Source of the DNA: a virus
Length of the DNA: 41,583 nucleotides
IMG/VR virus record: IMGVR_UViG_3300032323_000253
Coordinates: 1-41,583 of that record
Strand: one strand, 5' to 3'
Notes under the pieces: model-generated
Databases searched by the model: none
What the model saw: the letters and a program-made list of their open reading frames with translations, nothing else
What the model was told of the DNA's origin: nothing
Shown: piece after piece, positions 6,383-21,037 of the stretch
Position numbering within the stretch: position 1 is the first letter of the stretch
Layout: every line of letters begins with the position of its first letter
Translations under genes and position numbers: made by a program

Positions 6383-8830
6383 ATGCCTATTCCATTAATA
6401 TCCAGAACGAACACCATTGATGAATGGCGTGTTCAAACCAACTTAGAAGCTAATGCTCTAAACAATTTAGAAACTGGCAACTACGTCAAGTCTAATGGTT
6501 CATTATCATTGACCGCTAACAGTTCTTTGATTATTACAGCCAACGGTACTGCACTGCAAGTATCCAATAGTGCTTTGTTTCAGAGTAACGTTACAGTTGC
6601 TGGTGATATTGCTCTAGGTACGCAAGGTTCAGCAACAGGCAATTTAACGACAGGTGGCATAGTAATAGTTCGTGGACCTGGCAATGCATTACAGGTGGCC
6701 AATAATGCAACTGTTAATACTGATTTACAAGTTACTCGCACAATTTACACAGGTAATGTTTCAGCTAATGGTGATGTTACTGTTGGAGGAAACGAAACAG
6801 TATCCGGTATTTTAAGACTACCTGGTTCAGGTAATGTTCTATATGTCAATACCGGTGTTGCAGTTGTTAAAACATTAAATGCAACCGATGTAAATACAAC
6901 AAATGCAGATATTGGTATAGCTACGATTGATGAAGAGAATGTTACACTTTCAACGATATCTATTGGCACAATTATTAATGGTAATGTTGTCACATTAACA
7001 AGCAATCAAGCTAATATAGCCAACTCAGTTTTGGCCAAAACGACTATTAACAGTGCAAATGTAGATTTAATTAATATATCAACAGCCAATGTCACATCGT
7101 TACTGAATGTTCAAAATGCTATTGTGCGAGTTAGAGGAACTTCTGCTTCAGACGATGCGTTAACAATTAGTCTTGGTAAAACAACTGTTCAAGATGTGGT
7201 GATTCAAGGTAACTTATCTGTTTCTGGAACATACACACAGACAGGTAACTCTAATATTGAAATCGATACAATTACTCTTAATGCGAATACAAACGTTAAT
7301 AAAGATGCATTTGTTATAAATCGTAGAATTTCTGGTAATAATGCAGTCATACAATGGAATGAAGTTGATAAGAATTGGAAAGTTTCTAGAGGTAATACAT
7401 ATTCTGCATTGAATGATGTTATAGATTCGAGTTATGTTCTCTCTGTTGTTACAAGCAATAGCACAACAAATGTAGCTTCAGCATCAGCAGCGAAAGCAGC
7501 CTTTGATACGGCAGTAATTGCTGGTGGTTATGCAAATTCAGCATTTAGAAGTCAAAACACTAGTGGTGTATATGCCAACACAGCTTATCTTCATGCTAAT
7601 GCATCATATGTTTCACAGAATACAACTGGTGTATATGCTAACACTGCATATCTACACGCCAATGCTTCTTATGCAAGTCAGAATACAACTGGTGTATATG
7701 CTAATGCATCATACAATCAGGCTAATACTGCAACCACCAATGCCGCTACGGCTGACCAAAGAGCAGTAACTAGTGGTGTATATGCCAATGCGGCATTTGC
7801 ACACGCCAACACAAGATTTGCTTCTGCTGGTGGTACAATCTCTGGTGCTGTTGTTATTAATGGTAACTTGACAGTTACAGGTACACAGACTTATGTAAAC
7901 TCAACAATTACAATGTTTGCTGACCCAATATTAACACTCAATGCTGACTGGCCAATGGCTTCAGCACCTGTCGAAAATGCAGGTATTGAAGTTCAACGAG
8001 GAACATCTGCAAACACAGTATTGAGATGGAATGAAACAACCGACAGATGGGAATTCACTAATGATGGCACAAACTACGGTGATATCGCTTCAGTAAGTCA
8101 AGTAACTTCATCAGGTTCATATGCTAACTCAGCATATACACAAGCAAATACGGCAACAACTAATGCCGCTACGGCTGACCAAAGAGCAGTGACGAGTGGT
8201 TCTTTTGCTAATAGTGCATACCTACAGGCTAACACAGCAACAACTAATGCGGCTACGGCAGACCAAAGAGCAGTAACTTCTGGTTCATTTGCTAATAGTG
8301 CTTTTGCAAGAGCAAACACTGCGGTATCCGATGCAGCATCAGCCAACTCAAATGCCAATGGTCGTGTATCCAAATCGGGTGATACCATGTCTGGTGCTCT
8401 AGTAGTTAACAGCACAATTACTGCCACAGGTAATATTACCGCACCTTTATTTGTTGGTACAGCAACTCAAGCTCGTTATGCTGACTTGGCAGAAAAATAT
8501 ACAACTGATGATGAATATTCTATCGGCACTGTTGTAGTTGTTAATCCTGAACCAGATTCAGAGGCAACAAAATCAACATCAATCTCTCAATTGGTTTTAG
8601 GAGTTATCTCCGAGAAACCTGCTTATCTAATGAACTCAGAATCCACTGGTCAAGCTATTGCTTTGCGTGGTCGTGTTCCTGTTCGTGTTGTTGGACCTGT
8701 TAAAAAAGGTCAAACATTGGTTTCTGGTCCTGATGGAACAGCCAGTGTTGGTGAAGTTAATCGTTTTGCGATTGCTTTAGAATCTAAAGATACACATGAA
8801 GAAGGGAACATTGAAGTAGTTATTTTATGA
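6383..8830 (+). CDS. Tail fibre protein with heptad repeats and C-terminal YADLAEKY domain
   Basis: This 815-residue protein is a probable tail fibre or tail-tip protein. Residues 1-370 are beta-rich short repeats of the GNLTTGG and VSGTYTQTG type. Residues about 375-480 are seven-residue repeats (ANTAYLH / ANASYVS / QNTTGVY), which recur at about 575-675 with the ADQRAVTSG variant. Between them is a fibre module running from SAGGTISG to ENAGIEVQRG and WEFTNDG, also present in the 1765-residue fibre downstream. The C-terminal 125 residues start with YADLAEKYTTDDEYSIGTVV and end with EEGNIEVVIL; they resemble the cap domain of cyanophage fibres. Its stop overlaps the next start as ATGA, so the modification cluster is translationally coupled to it. 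The host receptor cannot be read from sequence. Confidence 0.85.
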   Translation: MPIPLISRTNTIDEWRVQTNLEANALNNLETGNYVKSNGSLSLTANSSLIITANGTALQVSNSALFQSNVTVAGDIALGTQGSATGNLTTGGIVIVRGPGNALQVANNATVNTDLQVTRTIYTGNVSANGDVTVGGNETVSGILRLPGSGNVLYVNTGVAVVKTLNATDVNTTNADIGIATIDEENVTLSTISIGTIINGNVVTLTSNQANIANSVLAKTTINSANVDLINISTANVTSLLNVQNAIVRVRGTSASDDALTISLGKTTVQDVVIQGNLSVSGTYTQTGNSNIEIDTITLNANTNVNKDAFVINRRISGNNAVIQWNEVDKNWKVSRGNTYSALNDVIDSSYVLSVVTSNSTTNVASASAAKAAFDTAVIAGGYANSAFRSQNTSGVYANTAYLHANASYVSQNTTGVYANTAYLHANASYASQNTTGVYANASYNQANTATTNAATADQRAVTSGVYANAAFAHANTRFASAGGTISGAVVINGNLTVTGTQTYVNSTITMFADPILTLNADWPMASAPVENAGIEVQRGTSANTVLRWNETTDRWEFTNDGTNYGDIASVSQVTSSGSYANSAYTQANTATTNAATADQRAVTSGSFANSAYLQANTATTNAATADQRAVTSGSFANSAFARANTAVSDAASANSNANGRVSKSGDTMSGALVVNSTITATGNITAPLFVGTATQARYADLAEKYTTDDEYSIGTVVVVNPEPDSEATKSTSISQLVLGVISEKPAYLMNSESTGQAIALRGRVPVRVVGPVKKGQTLVSGPDGTASVGEVNRFAIALESKDTHEEGNIEVVIL
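7500..7830 (+). repeat. Coding heptad repeats in fibre 6383-8830
   Basis: In-frame repeats of 21 bases (7 residues), arranged mostly in 63-base units. The consensus heptads are ANxAYxH, ANxxYxS and QNTTGVY. Synonymous sites differ between copies, so the repeat is kept at protein level. Confidence 0.8.
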
Positions 8831-9354
8831 TAAGTATTGGTGAGTTTGAAGAATTTATACATAATGATTTTGTTTATACACAAAAATTAATCTCGGTTAT
8901 CAACGAAGAAGGCAAACAAATATTCGTTGATAACTTGAGTGAACTATATAAGTTTAATGCGTGTACCATTAAATTGGAACACATGGAAATATATAGTAAA
9001 GAAATTTACGATTATTGTAAGTTGCTTTCCAGTAAATATAATAATGATTTGCCGGTGACTTGTCATGTATTCAGAGCCTTTAGGCAATCTTTAAGTTTTG
9101 GCTTGCATACCGACCCGGACGATGTTATACTACGTTGTATTTGGGGTAAAAAAAGAATGAGTGTTAACGGTAAAATTGTTGACCTCTATGCAGACCAAGA
9201 AGTTTTCATTCCCGCAAATACACCACATGAAGCTCTCAATGATGAAGAATCGTTGATGTTAAGCTTTGGTTTAGAAGATTTTTATAAGAATAAAATATAT
9301 AATGAATTGGATGTTCTACCTAAAAACCACGGAAACGTGCAATCTGAATTGTAA
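8827..9354 (+). CDS. Cupin/JmjC-like putative 2-oxoglutarate/Fe(II) dioxygenase
   Basis: This 175-residue protein looks like a small cupin-fold oxygenase. A possible metal triad is visible: H94-x-D96 in FGLHTDPDD and H134 in FIPANTPHEA, separated by a beta segment with IWGKKRM and the DQEVFIPANTPH turn seen in JmjC/cupin_8 proteins. Enzymes of this class hydroxylate protein side chains or small molecules using Fe(II) and 2-oxoglutarate; the substrate here is unknown. It begins in an ATGA overlap with the fibre gene and its last 53 bases overlap the first radical SAM gene, so it opens the modification cluster. It could also be a non-catalytic cupin, because the 2-oxoglutarate-binding residue cannot be assigned with certainty. 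Confidence 0.65.
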   Translation: MISIGEFEEFIHNDFVYTQKLISVINEEGKQIFVDNLSELYKFNACTIKLEHMEIYSKEIYDYCKLLSSKYNNDLPVTCHVFRAFRQSLSFGLHTDPDDVILRCIWGKKRMSVNGKIVDLYADQEVFIPANTPHEALNDEESLMLSFGLEDFYKNKIYNELDVLPKNHGNVQSEL

Positions 9355-10366
9355 ACATTGTTTTACAAACGGCACCAATGGATCTAAGGTATTTTGGAAT
9401 CATTATAAGATAATTGACTGGATTAAAAGATTTGCAGAATATAGAAAAGATTTTCTAAAAGAAGATACTCTACATTGTGAATTTCATGGTGGTGAACCTT
9501 TCTTAGTTCCCACTTTTCAAATGCGACACGTTTGGGAAGATTGTAAAGATTTATTTCCCAATATGACTTGGGGTGCAACAACAAATTTAGTTTATAAGCT
9601 TGATGAAGAACAGATTGATTTAATCAAAGACTGTTTTGACAATCGTATAGGTACAAGTTGGGATCCTAAAATACGATTTGCAAACCAAAAACAAAACGAC
9701 TTATGGTTAAAGAATGTTAAAACTGTTGTTGACCGAGGAATAGATGTTAAGTTGTTCATCAGTGTCACAAAAGATACAATAGAGATAGAACCCATCGAAC
9801 TGTTGAAATGGGTCAAAAGTTTAGGCATAAAAGAACTATCTTTTGAACGACTTACTGGTAACGGAAATGCTAACTTGCATCCTGAAATCTTTCCGACTAA
9901 TATTGAACAAGATGCATGGTTTTTGAAGATGCATCATCAATCAGAAGAACAAGGTTGTAGAGAATGGTTTGATAATGAATTTTTGGAAACTATTTACAGT
10001 AAGTTTGAAACTGGATTTCTAAAGAGTGGAACATTTTGTCGAGATTGTGAAGAAAAGTTGTTTACGGTCAATGCCGATGGTACTATCTCTGGATGTCCAA
10101 ACTCCGCACCAGAATTTCAGTTCGGAAACATTGATGATGATATAGAAACACTTATAAATAGTCCTATAAGAATAGAAAATATCGCTTGCGAGAGGTCTAG
10201 GGACCCAAGATGTTATTCATGCGATGTTTTTGAGTATTGTGGTGGAGATTGCCACCAACTAGGGTGGCAAGACGATGTTTGTGGTGCACCTAAAAGTTTA
10301 ATGAGATTTATAAAGAATAATCAAAAAAGAAAAGTTTGGATAATGAAAAATGGCAACATTAAATAA
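9302..10366 (+). CDS. Radical SAM protein with SPASM domain (1 of 5)
   Basis: This 354-residue protein is a radical SAM enzyme. The [4Fe-4S]/SAM motif is C13-x3-C17-x2-C20 (ETCNLNCKHCF), followed by GGEP at 63-66. The C-terminal third is a full SPASM domain: C249-x10-G260-x4-C265, then C304-x2-C307-x5-C313-x3-C317 and C327, enough for auxiliary Fe-S clusters. SPASM enzymes usually modify ribosomal peptides or proteins through thioether, C-C or similar bonds. The gene lies directly upstream of, and overlaps by 17 bases, the CHxS-tail protein, which makes that protein its best candidate substrate. The start is uncertain: ATG 9302 or ATG 9311 (MFYLKTTETCN); neither has a clear ribosome binding site. 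Family call is firm; the reaction is not known. Confidence 0.92.
   Translation: MNWMFYLKTTETCNLNCKHCFTNGTNGSKVFWNHYKIIDWIKRFAEYRKDFLKEDTLHCEFHGGEPFLVPTFQMRHVWEDCKDLFPNMTWGATTNLVYKLDEEQIDLIKDCFDNRIGTSWDPKIRFANQKQNDLWLKNVKTVVDRGIDVKLFISVTKDTIEIEPIELLKWVKSLGIKELSFERLTGNGNANLHPEIFPTNIEQDAWFLKMHHQSEEQGCREWFDNEFLETIYSKFETGFLKSGTFCRDCEEKLFTVNADGTISGCPNSAPEFQFGNIDDDIETLINSPIRIENIACERSRDPRCYSCDVFEYCGGDCHQLGWQDDVCGAPKSLMRFIKNNQKRKVWIMKNGNIK
10153..10160 (+). promoter_or_regulatory. Possible internal late promoter box TATAAATA
   Basis: A perfect T4 late -10 sequence lies inside the SPASM gene, 189 bases before the CHxS-tail gene. It may add expression of that gene, but a chance match in AT-rich coding DNA is quite possible. 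Confidence 0.25.
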
Positions 10367-10922
10367 TCCCATAAATCCGCAAAATATCGTTGATAGATTT
10401 GCAGACTATGTAGTATCCACGGCCAATGCAGGAATTGTTTGGGGTACCGATGTTTCTCCTTTTGTTGAATTTAACACAGCTGAATTTGGTGGAACAACAT
10501 CAGGTAAGGCAATAGGAATTTCTGGTTCAAATATCAATGCAGTAGGTGATACAATTACTGCAACTAATATTTACAACACATTGGTTAATGAAACAGCTAC
10601 ATTTAGTAATATCAGAAATCTAAGAGCATTGTTGTTCGTTGAAGGTGGTGGTGGAAACACAGGTTCTAGGCCTACTCCTGGATATGTTTATGATAATACA
10701 CAAGTGGCATATTTGAATTCTTCATATTTACAAAGTGTTGGTTCACCTAGTGCTTCAGACGTATCTTCTGGTAATTCGGTAACTAGTTCGGGTTTAGAAA
10801 CATTCTTTGTGAATTTACAGTCTGCCTATAACACAACAAGAGCAGCAACTGCAACAATACAAGTTAATGTATGTCACGCTTCTTGTCATTCATCATGTCA
10901 CAGTTCAAGAGGAAGAAGATAA
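10350..10922 (+). CDS. Putative RiPP-like precursor or modified virion protein with (CHxS)3-RGRR tail
   Basis: This 190-residue protein is not one I can name. Residues 1-170 look like a folded or leader-like part: an N-terminal NPQNIVDRFADYVVSTANAG helix, a GGTTSGKAIGISG segment, and a later helix with LETFFVNLQSAYNTTR. The C-terminus is striking: C175-HAS, C179-HSS, C183-HSS, then R187-G-R-R. These are the only cysteines in the protein, and all sit in a period-four CHxS array. The next gene starts inside its stop codon, and five radical SAM and four oxygenase-like genes surround it. This is the layout expected of a RiPP precursor with a C-terminal core, although its length and location also fit a minor tail protein whose tip is modified. 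HxS-type precursors also carry His-x-Ser repeats, but no relation is shown here. Confidence 0.6.
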   Translation: MATLNNPINPQNIVDRFADYVVSTANAGIVWGTDVSPFVEFNTAEFGGTTSGKAIGISGSNINAVGDTITATNIYNTLVNETATFSNIRNLRALLFVEGGGGNTGSRPTPGYVYDNTQVAYLNSSYLQSVGSPSASDVSSGNSVTSSGLETFFVNLQSAYNTTRAATATIQVNVCHASCHSSCHSSRGRR

Positions 10923-11635
10923 TGAATATTATTGAAACGGCAGCTCCCATCTCAATTGAAAATCTTAAAAAATATTTTACTGATAAGACTATTGTTTATT
11001 TGGTTGATTATGAAAACAGCATACTAAAAGGTGCTAAACTTTTGACATATCTAAGTAATCTTGATTTGCCATGTGATATCAAATTAACAAATACAGAAGA
11101 AGATTATTCTCTAGTAAAAGATTATATGACTTCGCCGATGTTATCCAATATCAGAAGTTTAGAATTCAAAGTAATCGAAATTCTAATGGAATATAAAGGT
11201 TTGTTGGTTGATAAAACAAATCAAGAATTTATAACCGATAACCAAGAATTGTTGTCTAAGTGGGCATCCAAATTAGATAGTTTAACAATTTATAATATGT
11301 ATATGATAAACTCTGCCGAGTTCAAACAATTTGCCGAATCTCACCCACATGATGATACGGATGAATTGATTGGTGTGAATTTCATTAGTCTTTTGAAACA
11401 TCCAGAATTTTATAGTTTTTACTCTAAGATTCCTAAAGAAAATCTTAAATTTTATACGAAATATTTTAATGAGTATATGTTCAAAGGAAAAAGTTTATTT
11501 TCATTTTGGGCTAACGAAAACAATCCATTATTTTTATTAACATATGGTATATCAGAAGGCATTGTGACTGGTAAAGAATATGTTGAAGCAAAAAAAGAAA
11601 CCGCACAAGGAACATTAAATGTTACACCTGTTTAA
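10922..11635 (+). CDS. Unknown protein, possible partner of the radical SAM pathway
   Basis: This 237-residue protein is unrecognised. I chose ATG 10922, which shares its A with the TAA of the CHxS-tail gene; an in-frame extension to 10871 would overlap the conserved cysteine tail and is less likely. The protein is mainly helical and acidic, with TIVYLVDYENSILKGAKLL near the N-terminus and a SHPHDDTDELIG loop near residue 145. It has one cysteine and no obvious metal site or membrane segment. Because it directly follows the presumed substrate gene and precedes another unknown protein, a role in substrate recognition or delivery is a reasonable guess only. Confidence 0.6.
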   Translation: MNIIETAAPISIENLKKYFTDKTIVYLVDYENSILKGAKLLTYLSNLDLPCDIKLTNTEEDYSLVKDYMTSPMLSNIRSLEFKVIEILMEYKGLLVDKTNQEFITDNQELLSKWASKLDSLTIYNMYMINSAEFKQFAESHPHDDTDELIGVNFISLLKHPEFYSFYSKIPKENLKFYTKYFNEYMFKGKSLFSFWANENNPLFLLTYGISEGIVTGKEYVEAKKETAQGTLNVTPV

Positions 11636-12743
11636 TAAAACATACTTAGAATTTGATGATAATGTGGATATCAATGTGGACCGTGTTGTCATATCTTCAC
11701 GATATGGTACACCTGTGTTGGCAGCTTTAGATAAAGTTGCCTATGGAGAATTGATATCTTACGGTAAAACTTTAGATGATGTTTTAGGTGAAGGTGATTT
11801 TATCGATTTTATAGAATCTGTAACCTCACATGGCAACACATCAAATAAAAAAGTTATTATTTTTTGCGATAAACAAAATTACAATCAATTTGTTTCATTG
11901 TGGTTCAAACTAATATTACCTAATTTAGATTCAACTTCATTTCAGAGTTTAATTGATTTAACACTCTATAAAGAAAGAATCACTAAGAACACACAGCTAT
12001 CAGCTTCAGGTCCAATGAACATATCTTATTTGGTTGGTGCCTTTGGTGATATTGTTGAAGTTTGGGAAGGTTTACCAAATTTTACAACTACACAAAAGAA
12101 TAAATTTAAGACTTTGAATTTGAACTTATCATATGAGTTTTTATTGTCCTCATACTTTGCTGGCTCAACAAGTTATACAGAAAAATTATTAAAGACGGCA
12201 CATTTGTTTTTAGAAAGATGGTTCAAAGAAGCACTTACTGATAACCGTCAGATGATTTTGATTAACTTAACCAATCATAAAATTTTATCAGATTTGGGTG
12301 TTGATTATAGTTTAGTGGATATCACAAAAGAAAATCCATTAGATGGTATTGAGCAATTCAAATACTACGCTGATGATGAAATTTGGGATAGAGTATCTGA
12401 TGCAAGTAGTGGCACATATGGTATCTGTAATCTTAGAGGTTTGTCCGATGAAAAATTACAAGGTCTGAAGAACACACTAATTGGTGTTTATAGTAATGCT
12501 GAAGGCATGGACACAAACAAAACTTGTTTCTCTGCTTTTGATTGGATTGATGTAGCTGGTCGAGATTCTATGACACAAGAAGAACTAGATTCTATTTTAG
12601 ACTTCTTAGTATCCGACCCATTTGATACTTGTTTAGTTCCTAGATTTGATTTCCAAAATGTAAACTTCAGTTTAATGTTACACATATTAAAATTAAAGAA
12701 AGACGGCAACAATTCTGAGTTGAATAAATTCAAACTTTTATAA
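11619..12743 (+). CDS. Unknown protein in modification cluster
   Basis: This 374-residue protein is unrecognised. The N-terminal 100 residues look like an alternating alpha/beta domain (VVISSRYGTPVLAALDK, GKTLDDVLGEGDF, KKVIIFCDKQNYNQFV). The middle is helical, and the C-terminal part contains ICNLRGLSDEKLQGLKNT and ends LNKFKLL. No radical SAM or oxygenase motif is present. It starts 17 bases before the end of the upstream gene, with AAGG about eight bases ahead of the ATG, and its TAA shares an A with the ATG of the next radical SAM gene. This tight coupling places it in the same pathway. I considered a DUF1835-like N-terminus but could not support it. Confidence 0.6.
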   Translation: MLHLFNKTYLEFDDNVDINVDRVVISSRYGTPVLAALDKVAYGELISYGKTLDDVLGEGDFIDFIESVTSHGNTSNKKVIIFCDKQNYNQFVSLWFKLILPNLDSTSFQSLIDLTLYKERITKNTQLSASGPMNISYLVGAFGDIVEVWEGLPNFTTTQKNKFKTLNLNLSYEFLLSSYFAGSTSYTEKLLKTAHLFLERWFKEALTDNRQMILINLTNHKILSDLGVDYSLVDITKENPLDGIEQFKYYADDEIWDRVSDASSGTYGICNLRGLSDEKLQGLKNTLIGVYSNAEGMDTNKTCFSAFDWIDVAGRDSMTQEELDSILDFLVSDPFDTCLVPRFDFQNVNFSLMLHILKLKKDGNNSELNKFKLL

Positions 12744-13816
12744 TGTTACGAGATATATTATTAGAACGCAAAAGGGACAAAGAACAAGAATACACACTAC
12801 ACCTATTTGAGTATTGTAATCTTCGTTGTTCCTTTTGTTGGCAAGACCACGAAAACATAGTTGGCCTTGACACAATCACTGAGAAATTAATTCCCATAGA
12901 GAAGTTTCTGCAAACAGAAACAAGAGATTCTGTTGTATTCAATGCAATGGGTGGTGAAATCTTTGCACCAGAAATATTCAATCAAAATTTACTCCAACAA
13001 TACAAAGACTTAACTTTAGGTATCAAAAATCTAGGGTTAAAATATAATAAGAAAGTAAAAATCAATTGGGTAACAAATCTAGTTACTGACAAATATAACG
13101 AAATTGATGAGTTGATGAATTACTCAAAAGAAGTGGGTGTTCATTCTGAAATTGTTACATCATACGACCCTAGAGGCCGTTTCAATAGAAATGATTTGGA
13201 ACAATTCAAAAAGAGTATGGAATACTTTGGTGATAGAGTAACTTGTATCAGTATGTTACTGAATGGTCCTAATATAGACTATATTCTACAAGACAAAGAT
13301 GCATACTTCAAAAAATTATATAATGAAGGCAAATACATCTATTTTGATTACTATATGCCAGATTCTTCAGCTGAATATCAATATCCCACAGCTCAAGATA
13401 TGTTGAATGTGTTTAAGCATTTCATTGACAAATATCCGAAAGTTCATCCAATTGCCGATTGGATTGAAAATGAAAAGAATTACTTATCATGCAGAACAAG
13501 TAAGTTAGTATTGGCTGATGGTACCATGTGTAATTGTGGCAACTTGGTACAAGAAGAAAAATCTATAAAATTCTACAAATCTAAAATAGAATCTATGGAC
13601 AACTCTGGAATAGAGGAAAGTTTTCTGAATAAGTATGATTGTATTTCATGTGAATATTTTGACAGATGTGGTTTGGGTTGCTTTATGCAACACGATTATA
13701 AATTCAGGGAAGAACTAGATGAGTGTGTCTACAAACTTACGCACCGATATATTGACGATGTTCGCTTATCAAGAAGAGCCGAACCCGTTGAATGTCAAAC
13801 TACTCCCCAACATTGA
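12743..13816 (+). CDS. Radical SAM protein with SPASM domain (2 of 5)
   Basis: This 357-residue radical SAM protein has C25-x3-C29-x2-C32 (EYCNLRCSFCW), preceded by a 20-residue charged N-terminal extension, and a GGE motif at 70-72. The SPASM domain is complete in pattern: C250-x9-G260-x4-C265, then C300-x2-C303-x5-C309-x3-C313 and C328. It therefore should hold auxiliary clusters and act on a peptide or protein. It shares only the family motifs with the first SPASM protein, so the two probably install different modifications or act at different sites. The gene starts in a TAATG overlap with the unknown 374-residue protein, and its 3' end overlaps the next gene by up to 98 bases. Confidence 0.92.
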   Translation: MLRDILLERKRDKEQEYTLHLFEYCNLRCSFCWQDHENIVGLDTITEKLIPIEKFLQTETRDSVVFNAMGGEIFAPEIFNQNLLQQYKDLTLGIKNLGLKYNKKVKINWVTNLVTDKYNEIDELMNYSKEVGVHSEIVTSYDPRGRFNRNDLEQFKKSMEYFGDRVTCISMLLNGPNIDYILQDKDAYFKKLYNEGKYIYFDYYMPDSSAEYQYPTAQDMLNVFKHFIDKYPKVHPIADWIENEKNYLSCRTSKLVLADGTMCNCGNLVQEEKSIKFYKSKIESMDNSGIEESFLNKYDCISCEYFDRCGLGCFMQHDYKFREELDECVYKLTHRYIDDVRLSRRAEPVECQTTPQH

Positions 13817-14288
13817 TGTAAAAAAAGATGATTTACCAATTGCATATCCTTATGTTCCTAGGATATGCAAAGAACAAGGCTATATGTTTATTTGGTATGG
13901 AACTCCAGAATCGGATCCTGATTTGGTTGAAGATTGTTTGCGAGTTAAGGATGAACCACAGTGGATTAGTTGTGAAGAATCGTGGAAGATTGAAACTGGC
14001 ATCGCATTAATTTACCCATACGAAGATGAGATTATTATAGGAGCTGTTAAAACTCCAGGGTATATGAAGAAAAGAACTAATGTGGAAATTAGAAATGTTT
14101 TAAGACATATGTGGAAAGATATAATACATATGTTTGGAGATAAAAAAATTATTTGTCCTAGTGGTTCTTATTTTGAATATTTGCATATGTCAATGAGCCA
14201 AATAAGGATACCACATGAAGCTTATCATTGGAAGATTATGAAACAAAATGGATTCAAACGTGACGGTCATTATTGGATTAGAAACTAA
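13719..14288 (+). CDS. Unknown protein, possibly GNAT-like acyltransferase
   Basis: This 189-residue protein has no firm family. The region from about residue 85 to the end, with GIALIYPYEDEIIIGAV, a long helix and then HWKIMKQNGFKRDGHYWIR, recalls GNAT-type acyltransferases of phages, where a late helix is followed by a GF-x-R-x-G-x-YW strand. The acetyl-CoA-binding R/Q-x-x-G-x-G/A loop is not evident, so this is weak. The start is ambiguous: ATG 13719 has AGGGA eight bases upstream but overlaps the radical SAM gene by 98 bases; ATG 13758 would shorten the overlap to 59 bases. If it is an acyltransferase, it could cap or acylate the modified product. Confidence 0.5.
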   Translation: MSVSTNLRTDILTMFAYQEEPNPLNVKLLPNIDVKKDDLPIAYPYVPRICKEQGYMFIWYGTPESDPDLVEDCLRVKDEPQWISCEESWKIETGIALIYPYEDEIIIGAVKTPGYMKKRTNVEIRNVLRHMWKDIIHMFGDKKIICPSGSYFEYLHMSMSQIRIPHEAYHWKIMKQNGFKRDGHYWIRN

Positions 14289-14876
14289 ATGCAACAATCA
14301 TTTATACTTTGGCCAACAAGAATAGAAGTAATTGATAATTTTATTGAAGATGTTAATATCATCAATCAATTAAAAGAAGAATCAATTATTAATACTGTAA
14401 TTAGTGGGCAAGACACCAGTAATATGTCTTGGGCTCAATCTGAACTTATGAGTATGGTTGATAGGTCTGTTATGACTTATTGTGTTGAAAGTAATATCGA
14501 TTACAATTCATTAGCCTTAAATGATATGCAAAAGGGTTGTTTGTATCCATATAGTGAAAGTATGGTCGGTAATCATCTATATGAACCGCACCACGACATT
14601 GCTGAAAATGGATTTATAACAGCCATCTACTATATCAATAGTGATTGGACAGAAGAAACTTGGGTTGGTGGTGAACTCTGTATCTATAAACAATTAACAT
14701 TTAGTGATTATCCAGAAAATTCAATCAACATTTTACCAAAATCAAATCGTCTAATTATATTTCCTGGTTATTTGGTGCATCGTGTCAAACCATATTTTGG
14801 TAAAAATCCAAGAACATCTATGGTAATGGGTTGGAGAGTTAATGAACCAACCAATAATAATGTTATGATTGTGTAA
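14289..14876 (+). CDS. 2-oxoglutarate/Fe(II) oxygenase-like protein, LWPT type (1 of 3)
   Basis: This 195-residue protein fits the prolyl-hydroxylase-like 2OG-Fe(II) oxygenase fold. It starts with the LWPTRIEVID segment shared by two other cluster genes. The metal triad is H101-x-D103 (EPHHDIAENG) and H164 (FPGYLVHRV), with R175 in NPRTSM as the likely 2-oxoglutarate contact. The strand WVGGELCIY between them is typical. Members hydroxylate peptide residues or small molecules; the target is unknown here. It begins immediately after the stop of the preceding gene and ends in a TAATG overlap with the third radical SAM gene, so it is translated as part of the cluster. Confidence 0.85.
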   Translation: MQQSFILWPTRIEVIDNFIEDVNIINQLKEESIINTVISGQDTSNMSWAQSELMSMVDRSVMTYCVESNIDYNSLALNDMQKGCLYPYSESMVGNHLYEPHHDIAENGFITAIYYINSDWTEETWVGGELCIYKQLTFSDYPENSINILPKSNRLIIFPGYLVHRVKPYFGKNPRTSMVMGWRVNEPTNNNVMIV

Positions 14877-15949
14877 TGGAACTAATCATTAAACCTACAG
14901 AAAAGTGTAACTTCAAATGCACATTCTGTTCATCAACACACATCACTGACGATAAAACGGCAGAATTAAGTCACGACCACATATTCAGATTTTTAGATAG
15001 ATATCCCGAAACAAACACTATCATTGTTAATGGTGGTGACCCATTGATGATGGAACCGGATTATTACTGCAAGATTATAGACTATCTTGACAGTAAGAAT
15101 ATGTCAACTACGATTTCATTTACAACCAATCTGTGGCCTTTTTATAAAAATCCTAATAAATGGATTGATTTGTTTAACCATGAAAGATTAGGCATCACCA
15201 CATCATTTCAATATGGTGGCGGTAGATTGAAAGGTGATTTGACTGAATTTTCAGAAGAAGATTTTTGGAATGTATCGAATAAGATGTTAGAGTTGGTGGG
15301 ATATAGACCAGATTTTATTTCAGTTATAACAGAACAAAATGTTGATAGAGCTATTGATAATGTCTTACTAGCCAAAGAGATGGGTGTTGAGTGTAAGTTA
15401 AATTATGCTTTTAGTTCAGGACCACCAGTTAAGTTTCGTGGTATCACTATGGGTCAACAAGGCAAACCATATGTGTTGGCTGATATCTATGAAATCTATG
15501 TTGAGATTTGGAAGATGGGTCTGACTGATTGGGAATACAATACTAAACAGATGGTCAAAAGGCTTAGTGGAAAATCAACATCTTGTCCACAAAATAGAAA
15601 TTGCGATTCTGGCATCAGAACATTACAACCATCAGGAGATTATTATTCATGTGGTGCCTTTGGTGATGATAAACAATATCCTATAGATTTTGAAAAAGAG
15701 ATGAGTGGTGATAAGATATTTCCACTTAAATTTCAACCTGAACTTAATTCATTGAAACAATCGTGTTTTACTTGCCCTATGTTTGATATTTGTAACGGAT
15801 GTAAAAAGACAATTAAAGATTTGAAAGACCACGACATGGTTGAAACACATTGTAAGAAGATGAAAACATTGGCAATAGATATAATAGAGGCTAACGGATT
15901 AACTGGAATTTTACAACCAACCGAGTATGAAGATGAGAGAAAATATTGA
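14876..15949 (+). CDS. Radical SAM protein with SPASM-like domain (3 of 5)
   Basis: This 357-residue protein has C11-x3-C15-x2-C18 (KCNFKCTFCSS) very near its N-terminus and GGDP at 53-56 in the place of GGEP. The C-terminal region carries C243-x10-G254-x4-C259 and then C297-x2-C300-x5-C306-x2-C309 with C326, a SPASM pattern with one spacing shortened by a residue. An extra C237 precedes it. It lies between two LWPT oxygenase regions and shares its start with the stop of the first oxygenase (TAATG). The role is presumed peptide modification; which bond is formed cannot be told. Confidence 0.9.
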   Translation: MELIIKPTEKCNFKCTFCSSTHITDDKTAELSHDHIFRFLDRYPETNTIIVNGGDPLMMEPDYYCKIIDYLDSKNMSTTISFTTNLWPFYKNPNKWIDLFNHERLGITTSFQYGGGRLKGDLTEFSEEDFWNVSNKMLELVGYRPDFISVITEQNVDRAIDNVLLAKEMGVECKLNYAFSSGPPVKFRGITMGQQGKPYVLADIYEIYVEIWKMGLTDWEYNTKQMVKRLSGKSTSCPQNRNCDSGIRTLQPSGDYYSCGAFGDDKQYPIDFEKEMSGDKIFPLKFQPELNSLKQSCFTCPMFDICNGCKKTIKDLKDHDMVETHCKKMKTLAIDIIEANGLTGILQPTEYEDERKY

Positions 15950-16997
15950 AAAACTAATAGACTTCACGTTAGAAGTTACTAATGGATGCCAATACAATTG
16001 CACTGGTTGTTCTGTAGACAAAGAAGGTAATTCTTGGCCTAGTGATTCCGATTTCGGTAGAATAGAATATTTGGTTGACGACTTGGCCAAAAATGATTTC
16101 AAACCTATGAATTTGGCCATAGGTCCAACTGATATTATGACCAGTGTTAATCGTGACCAGATACTTGGTAGTGATATGGTGAAAAATTTAGCAAAGAAGT
16201 TTCTAAAGACATCCATTAATTGTGCCTTCCTTGACCCGTTTGATGAGAATTATATCAATATGGGTAAGAAATTAAATTGGTTATTGGAAGGCGGCATAGT
16301 TAAATTTGTCATACCTTTTGAAGCCTTTCACATAGACAATAAAGAATATATTAATCGTATTCGTAGAAGAAGAGATTTGGTATTAAGTCAAATGCCAAAT
16401 GTAAAACACCACAAAACATATTTGGTGATAAATTATGAAACTTCTTCTGTTTATGATAAAGAAAACAACACAAATATTACTGAAGATTTGATTCTTAAAG
16501 TTTACGAATCTGAATTAATAGGAGATTTCAATACTGATATTGTTTTACCACAAACTAGAGCCAATCTAAGAGAGCCTGAAGTTTCTTTTGCATTTCTAAA
16601 AGCCACACATAAATTAAAAACAACAATGGCTGCCGCTAGAAAAAAATACGGATATACAGTAGAGATTGCCGAAACAATGACACATGAAGGTAAAGATTGG
16701 GACATATTCTATAAAGCTGGTAAATTGTATATGACACCATTTTTATTAGAAGGTTTGGCTTGTTTTGATGAAAAGTTTGAAGTTACAACTGATTGGACTT
16801 TTGATGGTTTATATTCTTATTATGTAGACGGTTTGGTTTCGCAGATTGATTGGGCTTTGAATAATGAAGATTGTTCATCATGCCAGTTTGTTGGTATGTG
16901 TGCTGAAAGAGGCATACACACACTAATGCAGGTTGTGGGAACAAACAAGTGTATAAGTCCGGCAAAGAATGTGGAAAACATGGTGATTTGGAATTGA
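15927..16997 (+). CDS. Divergent radical SAM protein (4 of 5), reduced C-terminal cluster
   Basis: This 356-residue protein has C21-x3-C25-x2-C28 (NGCQYNCTGCSVD), so it should bind the SAM cluster. The usual GGE is not recognisable; NLAIGPTDIM occupies that position. The C-terminus has only C316-x2-C319-x5-C325 and C342, without the preceding C-x-G-x-C pair of full SPASM domains, so it probably holds one auxiliary cluster at most. It may be a distinct subfamily, or a partner that works with another radical SAM protein. The start is ATG 15927 or ATG 15933, both inside the end of the upstream gene. Confidence 0.85.
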   Translation: MKMRENIEKLIDFTLEVTNGCQYNCTGCSVDKEGNSWPSDSDFGRIEYLVDDLAKNDFKPMNLAIGPTDIMTSVNRDQILGSDMVKNLAKKFLKTSINCAFLDPFDENYINMGKKLNWLLEGGIVKFVIPFEAFHIDNKEYINRIRRRRDLVLSQMPNVKHHKTYLVINYETSSVYDKENNTNITEDLILKVYESELIGDFNTDIVLPQTRANLREPEVSFAFLKATHKLKTTMAAARKKYGYTVEIAETMTHEGKDWDIFYKAGKLYMTPFLLEGLACFDEKFEVTTDWTFDGLYSYYVDGLVSQIDWALNNEDCSSCQFVGMCAERGIHTLMQVVGTNKCISPAKNVENMVIWN

Positions 16998-17941
16998 AGA
17001 ATATAACATTATCGGTAAACCCATGGTACTACTGCAACTTCAGATGTGACTTTTGTTATCTAACTGAAAGTCAATTGGAAGACACCAAGCTGTTACCGAT
17101 TGAAATTTTAGAAGAAAGACTGATAGAGATTTCAAGTTATGCCAAAATTGACATGGTAGACTTGTATGGTGGGGAAGTAGGAATATTGCCGTATGAGTAT
17201 ATTTCGGCAATGAAAGAGATGTTTCATACTTACGGCATAGATGGTATCAACTTAATAACTAATTTATCTATGGTCAATGACATTGTTACCGATGAAGATT
17301 TTTATATCTCTGTTAGTTATGATTTTGAAGCCAGAGAGAAGCATGAACAGGTGTGGAGAAATATGTTGTTACTTAAACGACCATTCTCTGTTCTTATGTT
17401 GGCCAGTCCAAAGTTGATTCAAAAAGATGTCAATGAAATGATACAGGCCTTCAATCTAATACCTAATGTTAGTAGTGTGGAGATTAAACCATATTCACCC
17501 AATCAGGCCAATCAGTTAAATATCAATTACCGTGAATATGAAGAATTCGTAAAAAAATGGATTGCAAGTCCAATACAGAAGAATTTTTCATTTACCAATG
17601 AACAACAAATTGAACTGAGTATCTCTAAAAGAAGAAATAGTTTTTCGGATGACCACATCTATATAACACCATCAGGTAAATATGGTGTATTGGAATTTGA
17701 TTTGAATGACAATGAATTCTTTTTAGAGTATGAAACTTTTGATGAATATTTGAACTGGTGTGAACGAGAAAAGAAAAGAGTTTTAAAAAATAAATTCTGT
17801 TCCGAATGTAAGTATTTTGGCAATTGTCTATCCGAACATCTAAGAGAGGTTAAGAATTTAGACAATAGCTGTAATGGATTTAGACTATTATTGAATTGGT
17901 ACGATGAAAGACTGGCAGATAAGACAAGACCTGTATCATAG
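16949..17941 (+). CDS. Radical SAM protein (5 of 5), reduced C-terminal cluster
   Basis: This protein of up to 330 residues has C29-x3-C33-x2-C36 (YYCNFRCDFCYL) and YGGE at 73-76, both well conserved. The C-terminal cysteines are C284-x2-C287-x5-C293 and C308, the same reduced pattern as in the preceding radical SAM protein, suggesting the two are related. There is no ATG start: GTG 16949 has GGGA eight bases upstream; TTG 16994 would form a TTGA overlap with the upstream stop and give a shorter N-terminus (LKNITLSVNPWYYCN). I list the longer form. The gene ends 38 bases inside the next reading frame. Confidence 0.88.
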   Translation: MYKSGKECGKHGDLELKNITLSVNPWYYCNFRCDFCYLTESQLEDTKLLPIEILEERLIEISSYAKIDMVDLYGGEVGILPYEYISAMKEMFHTYGIDGINLITNLSMVNDIVTDEDFYISVSYDFEAREKHEQVWRNMLLLKRPFSVLMLASPKLIQKDVNEMIQAFNLIPNVSSVEIKPYSPNQANQLNINYREYEEFVKKWIASPIQKNFSFTNEQQIELSISKRRNSFSDDHIYITPSGKYGVLEFDLNDNEFFLEYETFDEYLNWCEREKKRVLKNKFCSECKYFGNCLSEHLREVKNLDNSCNGFRLLLNWYDERLADKTRPVS

Positions 17942-18308
17942 ATTGAATACAGAACATTCGGATGATTTAAGTTTACATCACATTGAAATAACAGACAATG
18001 TGGTTGAAGATGCTATTAGATATTTCAATGAAAGAGATATAGGTTGGATATACCCATCTAAAAGTTACATGGTTGGTATATGTTATGCTAAATGGTTATC
18101 TGAACAATTTGGTGGAGAACCAATTGATTATTTGAATGAAGAAGATTTACTATATGGAAATGACCCATACTTTGTAACTTACGATAAAGACAAAGATACT
18201 TATGATGAAATACTAAGTAAAATTGGTGGTTGGAATTTCAAATCTGATGGTATGGTTTCTGATGTTAAAGAATATTTTAATGAGGAGTTTATGATTGAAA
18301 ACTTTTAA
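17904..18308 (+). CDS. Small unknown acidic protein
   Basis: This 134-residue protein is unrecognised. It is rich in Asp, Glu and Tyr. The central part, EDAIRYFNERDIGWIYPSKS, followed by YAKWLSEQFGGEP, reads as two helices with a turn, and the C-terminus, VKEYFNEEF, is another helix. There are no conserved Cys/His metal motifs. The ATG at 17904 lies inside the end of the fifth radical SAM gene, and its last codons contain the ribosome binding site and TTG start of the next oxygenase, so translation of the two is linked. A helper or substrate role is possible but unsupported. Confidence 0.55.
   Translation: MKDWQIRQDLYHRLNTEHSDDLSLHHIEITDNVVEDAIRYFNERDIGWIYPSKSYMVGICYAKWLSEQFGGEPIDYLNEEDLLYGNDPYFVTYDKDKDTYDEILSKIGGWNFKSDGMVSDVKEYFNEEFMIENF
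18283..18297 (+). promoter_or_regulatory. Ribosome binding site fixing a TTG start
   Basis: AGGAG at 18283-18287 lies seven bases before TTG 18295. The nearby ATG 18291 is in the frame of the upstream gene and ends within five codons, so TTG is the start of the second LWPT oxygenase. Confidence 0.75.
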
Positions 18309-18807
18309 TTTATGGCCAACCAGAATTGTTATTGACCAGTTTGACGAATCTGATACTATGGAAATATTCAACAATTATTTGATTGGTAATGATTCAGATT
18401 GGGATACATTGATACCTGAAAATTTACAACAAAAACTTTTGAATGTTATAGAAGATAATTATTCTGGTAAATATGAAATAATTGATGGATGGATAAGAAA
18501 ACTTGAAACAGATAGTCATAATGAATTTGAGTTACATTCGGATTCTCATTATGGAGGTCATTTAATTTCTGTTATACAATTGATGGGTGATGAGAATTCT
18601 GGTGGCAATTTAATTATATACGACCCAGCTTGGAGGAATCCACAATTTATGTCAGATAAAAAAACAGAGATGTCAAACAGATTTGAAATACCATTTAATC
18701 CAACAACAGTTATTATTTTTCCTAGTAATGTTTGGCACAAAGTTTCGGAGTATACTGGTAAAACAAACCGATTGACCATGAATCTTATTATTAAGAGGAT
18801 ATTATGA
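18295..18807 (+). CDS. 2-oxoglutarate/Fe(II) oxygenase-like protein, LWPT type (2 of 3)
   Basis: This 170-residue protein starts at TTG with MKTFNLWPTRIVIDQF, which parallels the N-terminus of the other LWPT proteins. The metal triad is H81-x-D83 (FELHSDSHYGG) and H148 (FPSNVWHKV), with R159 in KTNRLTMN as likely 2-oxoglutarate ligand. GGNLIIYDPAWRNP is the usual strand-turn segment. Length fits a minimal oxygenase domain. It is set between the unknown 134-residue protein and the third oxygenase, with an ATGA overlap at its end. Peptide or protein hydroxylation is a plausible role from family and context; the target is unknown. Confidence 0.85.
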   Translation: MKTFNLWPTRIVIDQFDESDTMEIFNNYLIGNDSDWDTLIPENLQQKLLNVIEDNYSGKYEIIDGWIRKLETDSHNEFELHSDSHYGGHLISVIQLMGDENSGGNLIIYDPAWRNPQFMSDKKTEMSNRFEIPFNPTTVIIFPSNVWHKVSEYTGKTNRLTMNLIIKRIL

Positions 18808-19373
18808 GAATAGAAAAACTTTGGCCTACCACATTGATGGTACATGAGATTGAAGATGAAAAATTAATGTCTGAATCTTTGGCTTTTCTAATGTCTAACC
18901 GAACAGAACTAGTTAATAGAGAGAATAAGAAAAGTTGTATATTAGAAAACGAACCACTAAAACAATTAAAAGAAAAAGTATTCTTACCGGCGTTTGATAA
19001 ATACCTACAAGAAACTTGTAATAAAAAACTTGATGATTGGAGTTACAATCTCAACGGATGGTTGGTGTCTTATGGTGAAGGTCAAAGTTTGAATTATCAC
19101 AATCATAGAGGTTCACAACTAAGTTCGGTACTTTATATGATGGCTGATTCTGAAGATGATGGGGGAGATGTATTATTCACCGACCCAAGACAAAACGCCA
19201 ATCGTGGATATGACCTACATTTTAGTAGTTGGTTTGAATCGTTTAGACTGAAACCTAAGTGTGGACAGTTAATTGTTTTTCCTAGTTTTCTATATCATTA
19301 TGTGGAAACATACAGAAGTAACATAAGAATGGCCTTGCCCGTAGATTGTTTCTTACAAAACAAACATAAATAA
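18804..19373 (+). CDS. 2-oxoglutarate/Fe(II) oxygenase-like protein, LWPT type (3 of 3), HxH variant
   Basis: This 189-residue protein begins MRIEKLWPTTLMVHEIED, again the LWPT start. The core reads SLNYHNHRGSQLSSVLYM, then GGDVLFTDPRQNANRG, then GQLIVFPSFLYHYVETYRS. It resembles the putative 2OG-Fe(II) oxygenase family with the H-x-H-x-x-S-x-LSxVxYM motif (TIGR02466/2OG-FeII_Oxy_5). Metal candidates are H99, H101 and H165, with R171 or R175 near the end; an H-x-H replaces the H-x-D of the other two. It is the last gene of the modification cluster and is followed four bases later by the S74-capped fibre. Confidence 0.83.
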   Translation: MRIEKLWPTTLMVHEIEDEKLMSESLAFLMSNRTELVNRENKKSCILENEPLKQLKEKVFLPAFDKYLQETCNKKLDDWSYNLNGWLVSYGEGQSLNYHNHRGSQLSSVLYMMADSEDDGGDVLFTDPRQNANRGYDLHFSSWFESFRLKPKCGQLIVFPSFLYHYVETYRSNIRMALPVDCFLQNKHK

Positions 19374-20679: not shown

Positions 20680-20690
20680 AGAATAAAAAA

Positions 20691-20704
20691 AGGAGTTCAT
20701 TTTG
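20691..20704 (+). promoter_or_regulatory. Ribosome binding site fixing a TTG start
   Basis: AGGAG at 20691-20695 lies six bases before TTG 20702. No ATG lies at a suitable distance in that frame, so TTG is the likely start. Confidence 0.7.
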
Positions 20705-21034: not shown

Positions 21035-21037
21035 GAA

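What the first reader, a model, noticed from the sequence alone, without database searches (positions are those of the whole stretch)
10350..10922. C-terminal (CHxS)3-RGRR array on a 190-residue protein
The only three cysteines lie in a strict four-residue period, each followed by His and a Ser at position four, with a basic RGRR end. This is core-peptide-like. Thioether crosslinks, metal binding by Cys/His, or cleavage after the basic end are all possible. It resembles His-Xaa-Ser repeat precursors only in the HxS unit.
Basis: partly seen in the sequence, partly recalled or inferred. Interest (0 to 1): 0.82.

Follow-up and report, generated by a model that had tools for sequence, protein, structure and literature searches.

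The report
Phage protein with enzyme-linked Cys-His tail
Many uncultured viruses of bacteria, six cultured phages and some chromosomes of the Bdellovibrio phylum share a small protein that ends in a nearly fixed Cys-His tail and sits beside radical-SAM enzymes that probably remodel it; since its neighbours are often tail-fibre or pilus-like genes, the tail may be a chemically modified tip for gripping other bacteria.

Summary
In detail: ORF 10350-10922 encodes 190 residues ending CHASCHSSCHSSRGRR, with no other cysteine. The tail marks a widespread family. Searching with the neighbouring radical SAM/SPASM enzyme alone, the tail gene followed within 1.7 kb in 76 of 76 viral loci with enough sequence. 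A second radical SAM enzyme gave 54 exact and 3 variant tails among 62 loci; 5 showed none in the stretch. The same genes are in six cultured phages, where the tail protein is annotated "hypothetical", and in Bdellovibrio-phylum genomes, often beside prepilin-like S74 genes. Bodies diverge; a confident AlphaFold model found no solved match. Natural variants keep a CHx[S/N] unit but change cysteine number; two become period-three Hx[S/N] repeats. Best reading: a RiPP-like core on a fibre-linked protein, matured by the operon's radical SAM enzymes. Modification, chemistry and virion location are inferred. In Atu_ph07 the gene is CDS 170, first of a published virion-protein cluster, which is only suggestive.

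The parts
10350..10922 (+). Tail-bearing protein, 190 aa: folded body (residues 1 to about 174) plus C-terminal (CHxS)3-RGRR
   Evidence: translation; alignments; model, mean pLDDT 87.4, last block of residues 52
10872..10919 (+). The 16-codon tail CHASCHSSCHSSRGRR (C175 to R190)
9302..10366 (+). rSAM1: radical SAM/SPASM enzyme; its end overlaps the start of the tail-bearing gene
   Evidence: PF04055 3.1e-8, SPASM TIGR04085 34.9 bits against 27; ten Cys invariant in 112 of 112 unique homologues of 320-420 aa at E<1e-60; tail gene within 1.7 kb downstream in 76 of 76
8827..9354 (+). Cupin/JmjC-like protein with HxD...H triad, overlaps rSAM1
   Evidence: PF07883 1.5e-4 and PF08007 4.7e-4, both below the Pfam cut-off; H94, D96 and H134 conserved in 95 of 95 unique homologues of 140-260 aa
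10922..11635 (+). Protein of phrog_20767, unknown function; its ATG overlaps the TAA of the tail-bearing gene (TAATG)
   Evidence: phrog_20767 4.9e-76; overlap; same 7 phage records as rSAM1; no solved match at E<=0.001
11619..12743 (+). Unknown protein following in many loci
   Evidence: no Pfam, NCBIfam or PHROG hit at E<=0.1; 54 of 127 family loci
12743..13816 (+). rSAM2, radical SAM enzyme
   Evidence: phrog_1802 4e-53; PF04055 25.9 bits, below the cut-off of 29.5; best-hit relative in 17 of 17 tabulated regions
13719..14288 (+). Unknown protein inside the operon; membership of the system uncertain
   Evidence: no Pfam or PHROG hit; 14 of 127 family loci
14289..14876 (+). 2OG-Fe(II) oxygenase
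   Evidence: PF13640 1.7e-10
14876..15949 (+). rSAM3, radical SAM enzyme with SPASM-like cysteines, the best conserved enzyme across hosts
   Evidence: PF04055 1.4e-8; TIGR04085 22.9 bits, below the cut-off of 27; eight C-terminal Cys invariant in 14 aligned; 52-81% identity in 16 of 17 tabulated regions
15927..16997 (+). rSAM4, divergent radical SAM-like protein; tandem copies accompany paired precursors elsewhere
   Evidence: phrog_31457 3.4e-13; PF04055 16.2 bits, below cut-off; CxxxCxxC at residue 21
16949..17941 (+). rSAM5, radical SAM enzyme
   Evidence: phrog_1802 1.5e-41; best-hit relative in 16 of 17 tabulated regions
17904..18308 (+). Small protein of phrog_20737 next to rSAM5
   Evidence: phrog_20737 2.8e-53
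18295..18807 (+). 2OG-Fe(II) oxygenase; role uncertain
   Evidence: phrog_81 3.1e-15
18804..19373 (+). 2OG-Fe(II) oxygenase; role uncertain
   Evidence: phrog_81 9.1e-24
6383..8830 (+). Tail-fibre protein directly upstream of the operon; its C-terminal domain recurs upstream of the operon
   Evidence: phrog_19602 tail fiber 2.2e-8; domain within 6 kb upstream in 53 of 73 loci with room
19378..20679 (+). Fibre protein with Peptidase_S74 chaperone domain; the domain also lies beside the operon in Bdellovibrio-phylum genomes
   Evidence: PF13884 2.4e-11

Best explanation
The 190-residue protein is a precursor with a folded body and a C-terminal core. The radical SAM enzymes of the same operon (rSAM1 and rSAM3 most tightly linked, probably with rSAM2, rSAM5 and the HxD...H cupin) modify the tail units, using the body and perhaps the RxRR end for recognition. 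The protein, body included, then serves in the contact apparatus: near the tail fibre in phages, and near an S74 fibre on a prepilin-type stalk in Bdellovibrio-phylum bacteria, where the rigid basic tail touches the target cell. Shown: the tail, its linkage to the enzymes, the overlapping genes, and the frequent fibre or prepilin neighbourhood. Inferred: that the tail is modified, by which enzymes and how, that the protein is in the particle, and that the tail contacts the target. The unit common to the period-four and period-three tails is Hx[S/N]; in two variants the His of a unit is Phe or Tyr. The most economical chemistry is therefore a crosslink between the aromatic residue and the residue two positions on, as in three-residue cyclophanes (that motif is recalled, not tested); a Cys thioether remains possible.
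For: Tail-blind linkage: 76 of 76 rSAM1 loci with enough downstream sequence (4 of 80 cut off; the 80 best of 377 relatives); rSAM3: 54 exact plus 3 variant tails of 62 loci with 9.9 kb or more upstream (80 best of 332). rSAM1, rSAM3 and the phrog_20767 protein hit the same 7 of 50,697 phage records; the six distinct phages all carry the tail. rSAM3 occurs in 18 of 368 genomes of the phylum, including all 9 with the exact motif (no match of the reversed control pattern is listed for any of the 368); 8 of the other 9 have a variant tail. SPASM cysteines invariant in rSAM1; among the nearest solved proteins by sequence are 5wgg (3.1e-8; a thioether maturase by recall) and the anaerobic sulfatase maturase 4k37 (3.6e-8). 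Only tail columns are invariant across 57 precursors, partly by construction. Overlapping frames. Fibre C-terminal domain within 6 kb upstream in 53 of 73 loci; S74 gene with a prepilin-like start in 10 of 15 examined genomes of the 18. The Atu_ph07 tail gene is CDS 170, first of the published virion cluster CDS 170-215. G054 and G112 tails are four Hx[S/N] units; CFTS and CYTP keep an aromatic residue.
Against: No modification, product or virion location has been measured. Five of 62 rSAM3 loci show no tail in the stretch (L308, L315, L372, L373, L376) and one genome (G083) has the enzymes with no precursor found; these may be truncations or distant genes, but that is not shown. In the paired-precursor loci rSAM1 is directly upstream in 0 of 18. 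All three published Atu_ph07 clusters are exactly 46 CDS long, so their edges may be fixed windows rather than detections. rSAM1 and rSAM3 lie far below every specific-maturase cut-off shown (25 best of 44 and of 59 models). 18 of 73 loci have no recognised fibre domain upstream, and 3 of 15 Bdellovibrio-phylum regions have neither S74 nor fibre gene, with L167 doubtful. Against the aromatic rule: in G054 the second Cys is followed by Ser, and in CYTP the residue two positions after the ring is Pro. The Phe and Tyr variants may be only two events. In G001 two ABC-exporter-like genes adjoin the cassette, which suits a released product.
Confidence: 0.58

Rival explanations
1. The tail is not covalently modified; Cys and His bind a metal (Fe or Zn) at a fibre tip, and the radical SAM enzymes act on other fibre proteins or on the body.
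For: Cys-His pairs repeated at a fixed spacing, few further cysteines (none in 75 of 108 entries); fibre neighbours. One Cys and one His are kept in every variant seen.
Against: The tail gene follows rSAM1 in 76 of 76 loci, and the enzymes persist where the tail has only one Cys (G112) or one His (G352), so a site that needs all six ligands is unlikely.
Confidence: 0.14
2. The tail is a recognition tag (a follower peptide) for the enzymes, and the modified residues lie in the body or in the adjacent fibre.
For: Enzymes often bind a conserved segment; the terminal RxRR is kept in the variants seen except in one phage (L347).
Against: No body residue is invariant across 57 precursors (the body columns that reach 90% are I29, P37, G48 and R89); repeated units are typical of cores rather than tags.
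Confidence: 0.12
3. The tail is cut off and released as a small modified peptide or cofactor (toxin, signal, metal carrier) during lysis or attack.
For: RiPP-like layout; many tailoring genes (five radical SAM-like and three 2OG genes in this window); in G001 two ABC-exporter-like genes (ABC_membrane plus ABC_tran) adjoin the cassette (L163:2190-5583).
Against: No protease or exporter was recognised in the family scans of the window's operon genes; folded, well-predicted body rather than a disordered leader; fibre neighbourhood.
Confidence: 0.1
4. The enzymes oxidise the tail without crosslinking, for example Cys or Ser to formylglycine as anaerobic sulfatase maturases do; the last unit C-x-x-S-R resembles a sulfatase motif (motif recalled).
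For: The rSAM1 profile matches anSME 4k37 at 3.6e-8 over positions 11-318; sulfatase maturase model 38 bits.
Against: 38 bits against a cut-off of 349.45; the first two units lack the Arg; the period-three tails do not keep the motif.
Confidence: 0.06

Closest known systems
His-Xaa-Ser (HxsA/HxsB/HxsC) systems
   Same: C-terminal repeats built on H-x-S, several radical SAM enzymes; two relatives (G054, G112) have four Hx[S/N] units in period three
   Different: Main form has Cys before each His and period four; precursor scores HxsA 16.1 of 121.65 bits on the HSS tail only (G112), G054 none; rSAM1 26.5 of 370 bits for HxsB and rSAM3 29.4 of 267.9 for HxsC. A Mucilaginibacter cluster with an HxS precursor and enzymes unrelated to HxsB/HxsC is reported (PMC9062424, passages seen)
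PapB-type ranthipeptides and CXXX-repeat maturases (TIGR04115)
   Same: Cys every four residues, SPASM enzyme (PapB 43.6 bits over residues 7-319 of rSAM1)
   Different: Far below cut-offs (340 and 350 bits); Cys number is not conserved here; long folded body; phage and fibre setting
Dynobactin maturase DynA
   Same: Best NCBIfam match of rSAM3 (52.3 bits, residues 4-330 of 357); DynA is recalled to act on a His side chain
   Different: Cut-off 450 bits; substrate unrelated
Bdellovibrio mosaic adhesive trimer (MAT) fibres (PMC10769870; start of abstract and passages seen)
   Same: Phage-like S74 fibres used by a predator on prey
   Different: 'radical SAM' and 'pilin' do not occur in its main text; here the S74 domain is on a prepilin-like protein next to the operon
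Radical SAM clusters of Campylobacter phages CP220/CPt10 (PMC2853527, passages seen)
   Same: Several radical SAM genes in one phage module (11 and 12 genes in the two phages)
   Different: The authors propose metabolic roles; no rSAM1 or rSAM3 hit in a Campylobacter phage, but I did not check that these phages are in the collection

Membership tests
HxsA/HxsB/HxsC His-Xaa-Ser system | Precursor reaches the TIGR03979 (HxsA) cut-off | tested here: not met
   P0001 no HxsA hit; G112 variant 16.1 bits against 121.65; G054 variant no hit
HxsA/HxsB/HxsC His-Xaa-Ser system | Maturases reach the HxsB and HxsC cut-offs | tested here: not met
   rSAM1 26.5 of 370; rSAM3 29.4 of 267.9
Radical SAM/SPASM peptide maturases (broad) | rSAM1: CxxxCxxC motif plus SPASM domain | tested here: met
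   TIGR04085 34.9 bits against 27; ten Cys in 112 of 112 unique rSAM1 homologues
Radical SAM/SPASM peptide maturases (broad) | rSAM3: SPASM domain at the curated cut-off | tested here: not met
   TIGR04085 22.9 bits against 27, though eight C-terminal Cys are invariant in 14 aligned
PapB/CXXX-repeat/FibroRumin ranthipeptide families | Model cut-off reached by enzyme or precursor | tested here: not met
   PapB 43.6 of 340, TIGR04115 30.9 of 350, FibroRumin precursor 13.8 of 45
RiPP in general | Enzyme-installed modification of a ribosomal precursor | not testable with these tools
   needs mass spectrometry
RiPP in general | Conserved core or recognition segment genetically linked to modifying enzymes | tested here: met
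Virion (tail-fibre-associated) protein | Present in purified particles | tested here: inconclusive
   Atu_ph07 CDS 170 opens the published virion cluster 170-215, but all three clusters are 46 CDS long and the protein table was not readable
Metal-binding tip | Constant set of metal ligands | tested here: inconclusive
   Six ligands in the main form, but Cys falls to one (G112) and His to one (G352) in variants; one Cys and one His always remain

The most novel reading that the evidence does not exclude
Phages and bacteria of the Bdellovibrio phylum share one machinery that builds a post-translationally crosslinked, aromatic-centred macrocyclic tip on a protein of their contact fibres: a RiPP that is never released but works as a structural tool for gripping or piercing Gram-negative cells. 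The module would have moved between phages and these bacteria as a host-attack cassette.
Probability: 0.35. Interest if true: 0.95.

Novelty: new variant of a known kind. Interest (0 to 1): 0.85.

Why it matters
The phage papers seen list such radical SAM genes as accessory, unknown or metabolic, or give no role. If the tail is modified it would be, as far as I know, the first enzyme-crosslinked peptide used in a phage's contact apparatus, and the shared genes in Bdellovibrio-phylum chromosomes would link phage adsorption to bacterial predation at the level of chemistry. Ten searches of open PMC papers listed no title or abstract that describes it; only the listed papers were seen, and papers outside that library were not searched.

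Tried and rejected
Whole-protein and tail-only tblastn in INPHARED found nothing; low-complexity filtering probably hides the tail, and the neighbours rSAM1 and phrog_20767 found the phages instead. A paired-type precursor (L087) hit 6 records, all among the same phages, through its C-terminal part. FibroRumin precursor (13.8 bits, cut-off 45) was rejected as a chance match to the tail. tblastn with a long precursor (L065) in phages and with L148 in plasmids found nothing. Ralstonia jumbo phages named in papers could not be read, as the accessions I tried are not in the collection. Structural comparison of the body and of the phrog_20767 protein gave no solved relative at E<=0.001; the tools warn that this does not prove a new fold. 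A loose pattern to find the missing precursor of G083 was uninformative: 428 matches against 519 for the reversed control. The BLAST clustering linked everything through the shared tail and is not used as evidence.

Rows dropped before counts: one search left out L001 (copy of the window), identical copies and incomplete frames under 100 residues, and kept the chance frame L134, so 107 of its 108 entries are real. One search left out L134; one search left out L134 and L001; one search kept both. Searches used length (and in 72 E-value) filters. frequencies are biased by the bait pattern, which demanded the Cys, His and two of the Arg; only searches are tail-blind, and they keep only the best 80 of 377 and of 332 relatives. 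One search examined 15 of the 18 rSAM3 genomes (not G004, G008, G009).
Full report
1. The observation. The frame 10350-10922 is real and reads as described: 190 residues, the only three cysteines at 175, 179 and 183, each followed by His, Ser fourth in each unit, then RGRR and stop. No other CH..CH occurs in any frame of the window. The gene lies in a run of mostly overlapping or abutting frames on one strand: cupin/JmjC-like protein (8827-9354), rSAM1 (9302-10366), the tail-bearing gene, a phrog_20767 protein whose ATG overlaps the stop codon (TAATG at 10920), an unknown protein, rSAM2, another unknown protein, a 2OG oxygenase, rSAM3, rSAM4, rSAM5, a small phrog_20737 protein and two more 2OG oxygenases. 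Fibre genes flank it. rSAM2 and rSAM4 are below the Pfam cut-off and rest on PHROG matches and the CxxxCxxC motif.

2. A family, not an oddity. A tblastn-confirmed scan gave eight loci; seven encode full-length close relatives, and L009 matched over 19 residues only. Of 172 matches in the loci then held, 152 had a stop codon directly behind the motif. After removal of near duplicates 108 entries remain, one of them a chance frame; the rest are 116 to 364 residues long, the shortest beginning close to a contig end. Position four is Ser in 95, 79 and 95 of the 108 entries for the three units, and 151 of 152 matches (all but the chance frame) hold at least one CHx[S/N]. Across 57 single-precursor proteins the only invariant columns are the tail Cys, His and Arg, at a mean column identity of 22%. 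Those residues, but for the last Arg in the viral pattern, were in the bait, so this is partly by construction; the synonymous codon mixture is not.

3. Tail-blind tests. With an rSAM1 alignment (A2) the viral collection gave 377 relatives, of which the best 80 were kept. In 76 a gene with three CHxx units and RxRR-stop ends within 1.7 kb of the rSAM1 stop, in 69 of them within 0.9 kb; the other four loci end within 250 bases. With rSAM3 (A5) 332 relatives were found and 80 kept. Of 62 with at least 9.9 kb upstream, 54 carry the exact tail, L367 and L369 carry CHYSCFTSSCHFSRGRR, and L347 carries CHSSCHYSCHSSCHGDGPGNGGGV without the basic end; five show nothing in the stretch (L308, L315, L372, L373, L376), of which L315 begins inside the phrog_20767 gene. 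Of 18 loci with less upstream sequence 9 carry the exact tail and 9 do not. The two tests share contigs with each other and with the bait search, so they are not independent samples.

4. Gene order. By phmmer, 92 of 127 family loci contain an rSAM1 relative, 89 the phrog_20767 protein and 61 the cupin (many loci are short). Counting only loci with room: rSAM1 directly upstream in 61 of 74 single-precursor loci; any radical SAM gene in 82 of 83; phrog_20767 within 1.5 kb in 68 of 82; cupin in 48 of 67. Twenty-three loci have paired short precursors (under 160 residues); none of 18 has rSAM1 directly upstream, but 19 of 20 have a radical SAM gene, usually rSAM4-like; phrog_20767 is within 1.5 kb in none of 21. 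The C-terminal domain of the window's fibre 6383-8830 lies within 6 kb upstream in 53 of 73 loci with 3 kb of room, 55 if S74 fibres are added; 18 have neither.

5. Cultured phages. rSAM1, rSAM3 and the phrog_20767 protein each hit the same 7 records of 50,697: Sinorhizobium Phosso, Agrobacterium Atu_ph07 (two records), Burkholderia S13 (SURPRISE13), FLC6 and FLC8, and Pseudomonas pPa_SNUABM_DT01. In all six distinct phages the gene ends in the tail and is annotated hypothetical. In Atu_ph07 it is CDS 170 by counting (the count puts a head completion protein at 125 and a sheath protein at 132, where the paper has gp125 head and gp132 sheath). The Atu_ph07 paper (PMC6102473; abstract, passages and the whole section on structural proteins seen) reports 131 virion proteins and clusters CDS 31-76, 170-215 and 284-329. 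The tail gene is thus the first CDS of a virion cluster, but all three clusters are 46 long, so I give this little weight. The S13 paper (PMC11898562, passages) lists the cupin, radical SAM and 2OG genes as accessory or unknown; the FLC6 paper (PMC8066314, passages) lists the same kinds of genes.

6. Bacteria. A scan of 84,980 genomes gave 19 loci, three of them (L133, L134, L140) chance. Nine of the rest lie in one phylum, which by record titles (Bacteriovorax, Bdellovibrionaceae, Halobacteriovoraceae) I take to be Bdellovibrionota; six others have phage-like order or paired precursors and L139 could not be judged. Of the 368 genomes held of that phylum 9 have the exact motif and none is listed with the reversed control; 18 have rSAM3 at E<=1e-40, including those 9. 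Of the further nine, eight carry variant tails near the same enzymes: CHGNFPPPCHGSRGRR (G086, G087, G091, G092), CHTNVPTPPPCHASRGRR (G110), CHSNHCSHSNHGSRGRR (G054), CHSSHSSHSSHSSRGRR (G112) and CHSNCYTPPPKSRSRR (G352, read by eye in the gap between rSAM1 and phrog_20767); in G083 no precursor was found. G110's precursor match is weak (E 0.049) but its tail and place agree. The setting looks chromosomal where tested: ribosomal S20 and 3-hydroxyacyl-CoA dehydrogenase in L164, cytochrome oxidase and FixG genes in L165, an AMP-binding enzyme in L166; L163 has two ABC-exporter-like genes next to the cassette. In 10 of 15 examined genomes a gene with a prepilin-like start and a Peptidase_S74 end lies near the cassette (Pfam S74 in the three tested and the N-methylation motif in one of them; the prepilin start of L164 was judged by eye); in one more (L280) a phage-type fibre domain precedes it; L166, L277 and L278 have neither and L167 is doubtful.

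7. Conservation of the parts. In best-hit comparisons with 17 regions rSAM3 is 52-81% identical to the window's (16 of 17), rSAM1 39-95% (17), rSAM5 41-92% (16), rSAM2 27-74% (17), and the phrog_20767 protein 27-59% (15). The values for the precursor are probably inflated by local alignments around the tail. That rSAM3 is the slowest-changing part fits an enzyme acting on a constant substrate.

8. Structure. AlphaFold2 on the 57-row alignment gives a confident body (mean pLDDT 87.4, pTM 0.81), three long helices and a sheet, with the tail at about 52. No solved structure matches (best Foldseek E 0.98; no Z of 2 or more among 469 chains re-aligned), which does not prove a new fold. Predicted viral proteins match: two of 178 and 173 residues (TM 0.81 and 0.67), one of Atu_ph07, and three of Myoviridae sp. 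ctijX18, the last of these at E 0.004. The phrog_20767 protein also has no solved match at E<=0.001. So the 'leader' is a folded domain, unlike short disordered leaders.

9. Mechanism. rSAM1 is SPASM-type; rSAM3 has SPASM-like cysteines but is below the SPASM cut-off. Both relate to peptide maturases by profile, at scores far under the specific cut-offs shown. The variants are the best guide to chemistry. Cysteine number goes from four (L043; L347) to one; the basic end is lost once. After its leading Cys the G054 tail reads HSN-HCS-HSN-HGS and the G112 tail HSS four times, so the unit shared with the CHxS form is Hx[S/N]. In CFTS (L367, L369) and CYTP (G352) the ring is kept but not the His. 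This favours a reaction on the aromatic side chain with the residue two positions on, over one that needs every Cys. Against it, G054's second Cys is followed by Ser and CYTP lacks the Ser or Asn. It rests on few events and on a recalled motif, so I hold it at about even odds among crosslink types. The cupin has an HxD...H triad in 95 of 95 unique relatives, which recalls Fe(II) oxygenases, and may hydroxylate the tail; this is inference.

10. What it is not. Not HxsA, PapA-type, FibroRumin or a CXXX-repeat family by the curated cut-offs tested. A metal site that needs all six ligands is disfavoured by the variants, a smaller one is not excluded. Not shown to be a toxin or a released peptide.

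11. Verdict. Observation confirmed; interpretation partly supported and extended. A widespread tail-plus-enzymes system, not found described in my searches, often beside contact-fibre genes in phages and in Bdellovibrio-phylum bacteria. Interest 0.85; confidence in the stated mechanism 0.58.

Noticed in passing
window 12743-19373: Four further radical SAM-like genes and three 2OG-Fe(II) oxygenases follow on the same strand; which act on the tail and which on fibres is open.
   Followed up: partly
L010, L035, L044, L058, L071, L085, L087, L106 and others: Tandem pairs of roughly 125-145-residue precursors with the same tail, often followed by several rSAM4-like genes (up to six in L105).
   Followed up: partly
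L347:7617-8189 and L043:8108-8878: Precursors with four CHxx units; L347 lacks the RxRR end and runs on into a Gly-rich stretch, with rSAM1 and rSAM3 kept.
   Followed up: partly
L272:2190-2558, L163:15373-15771, L164:7931-8233, L281:9211-9594, L279:16264-16644: A small protein of 100-132 residues with a twin-arginine-like stretch (RRxF or similar) near its start recurs near the S74 prepilin-like gene in Bdellovibrio-phylum genomes.
   Followed up: no
L163:16951-17505, L165:1130-1729, L272:426-1010, L276:14415-14999: A 184-199 residue protein (no Pfam hit in the two of these four that were tested), in several cases seen to end ...GRHWVKxK, next to the prepilin-S74 gene.
   Followed up: no
L163:2190-5583: Two ABC-exporter-like genes adjoin the cassette in genome G001; possible export of a product.
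   Followed up: partly
L165:3769-5481: A radical SAM protein with a weak B12-binding match (both below Pfam cut-off) lies in the G003 region; L164 has a similar-looking protein.
   Followed up: no
L151:20406-21583: Two dihydrofolate-reductase-annotated genes sit inside the cassette of Burkholderia phages S13 and FLC6.
   Followed up: no
BFVD entries A0A8S5USJ8, A0A8S5USJ7, A0A8S5USV2: Three long proteins (504-660 residues) of Myoviridae sp. ctijX18 match the precursor fold; whether they bear the tail is unknown.
   Followed up: no
window 19378-31222: Several fibre-like proteins with long ANSAY/SQNTTGVYANTAY-like repeats; the largest is 21271-26568.
   Followed up: no
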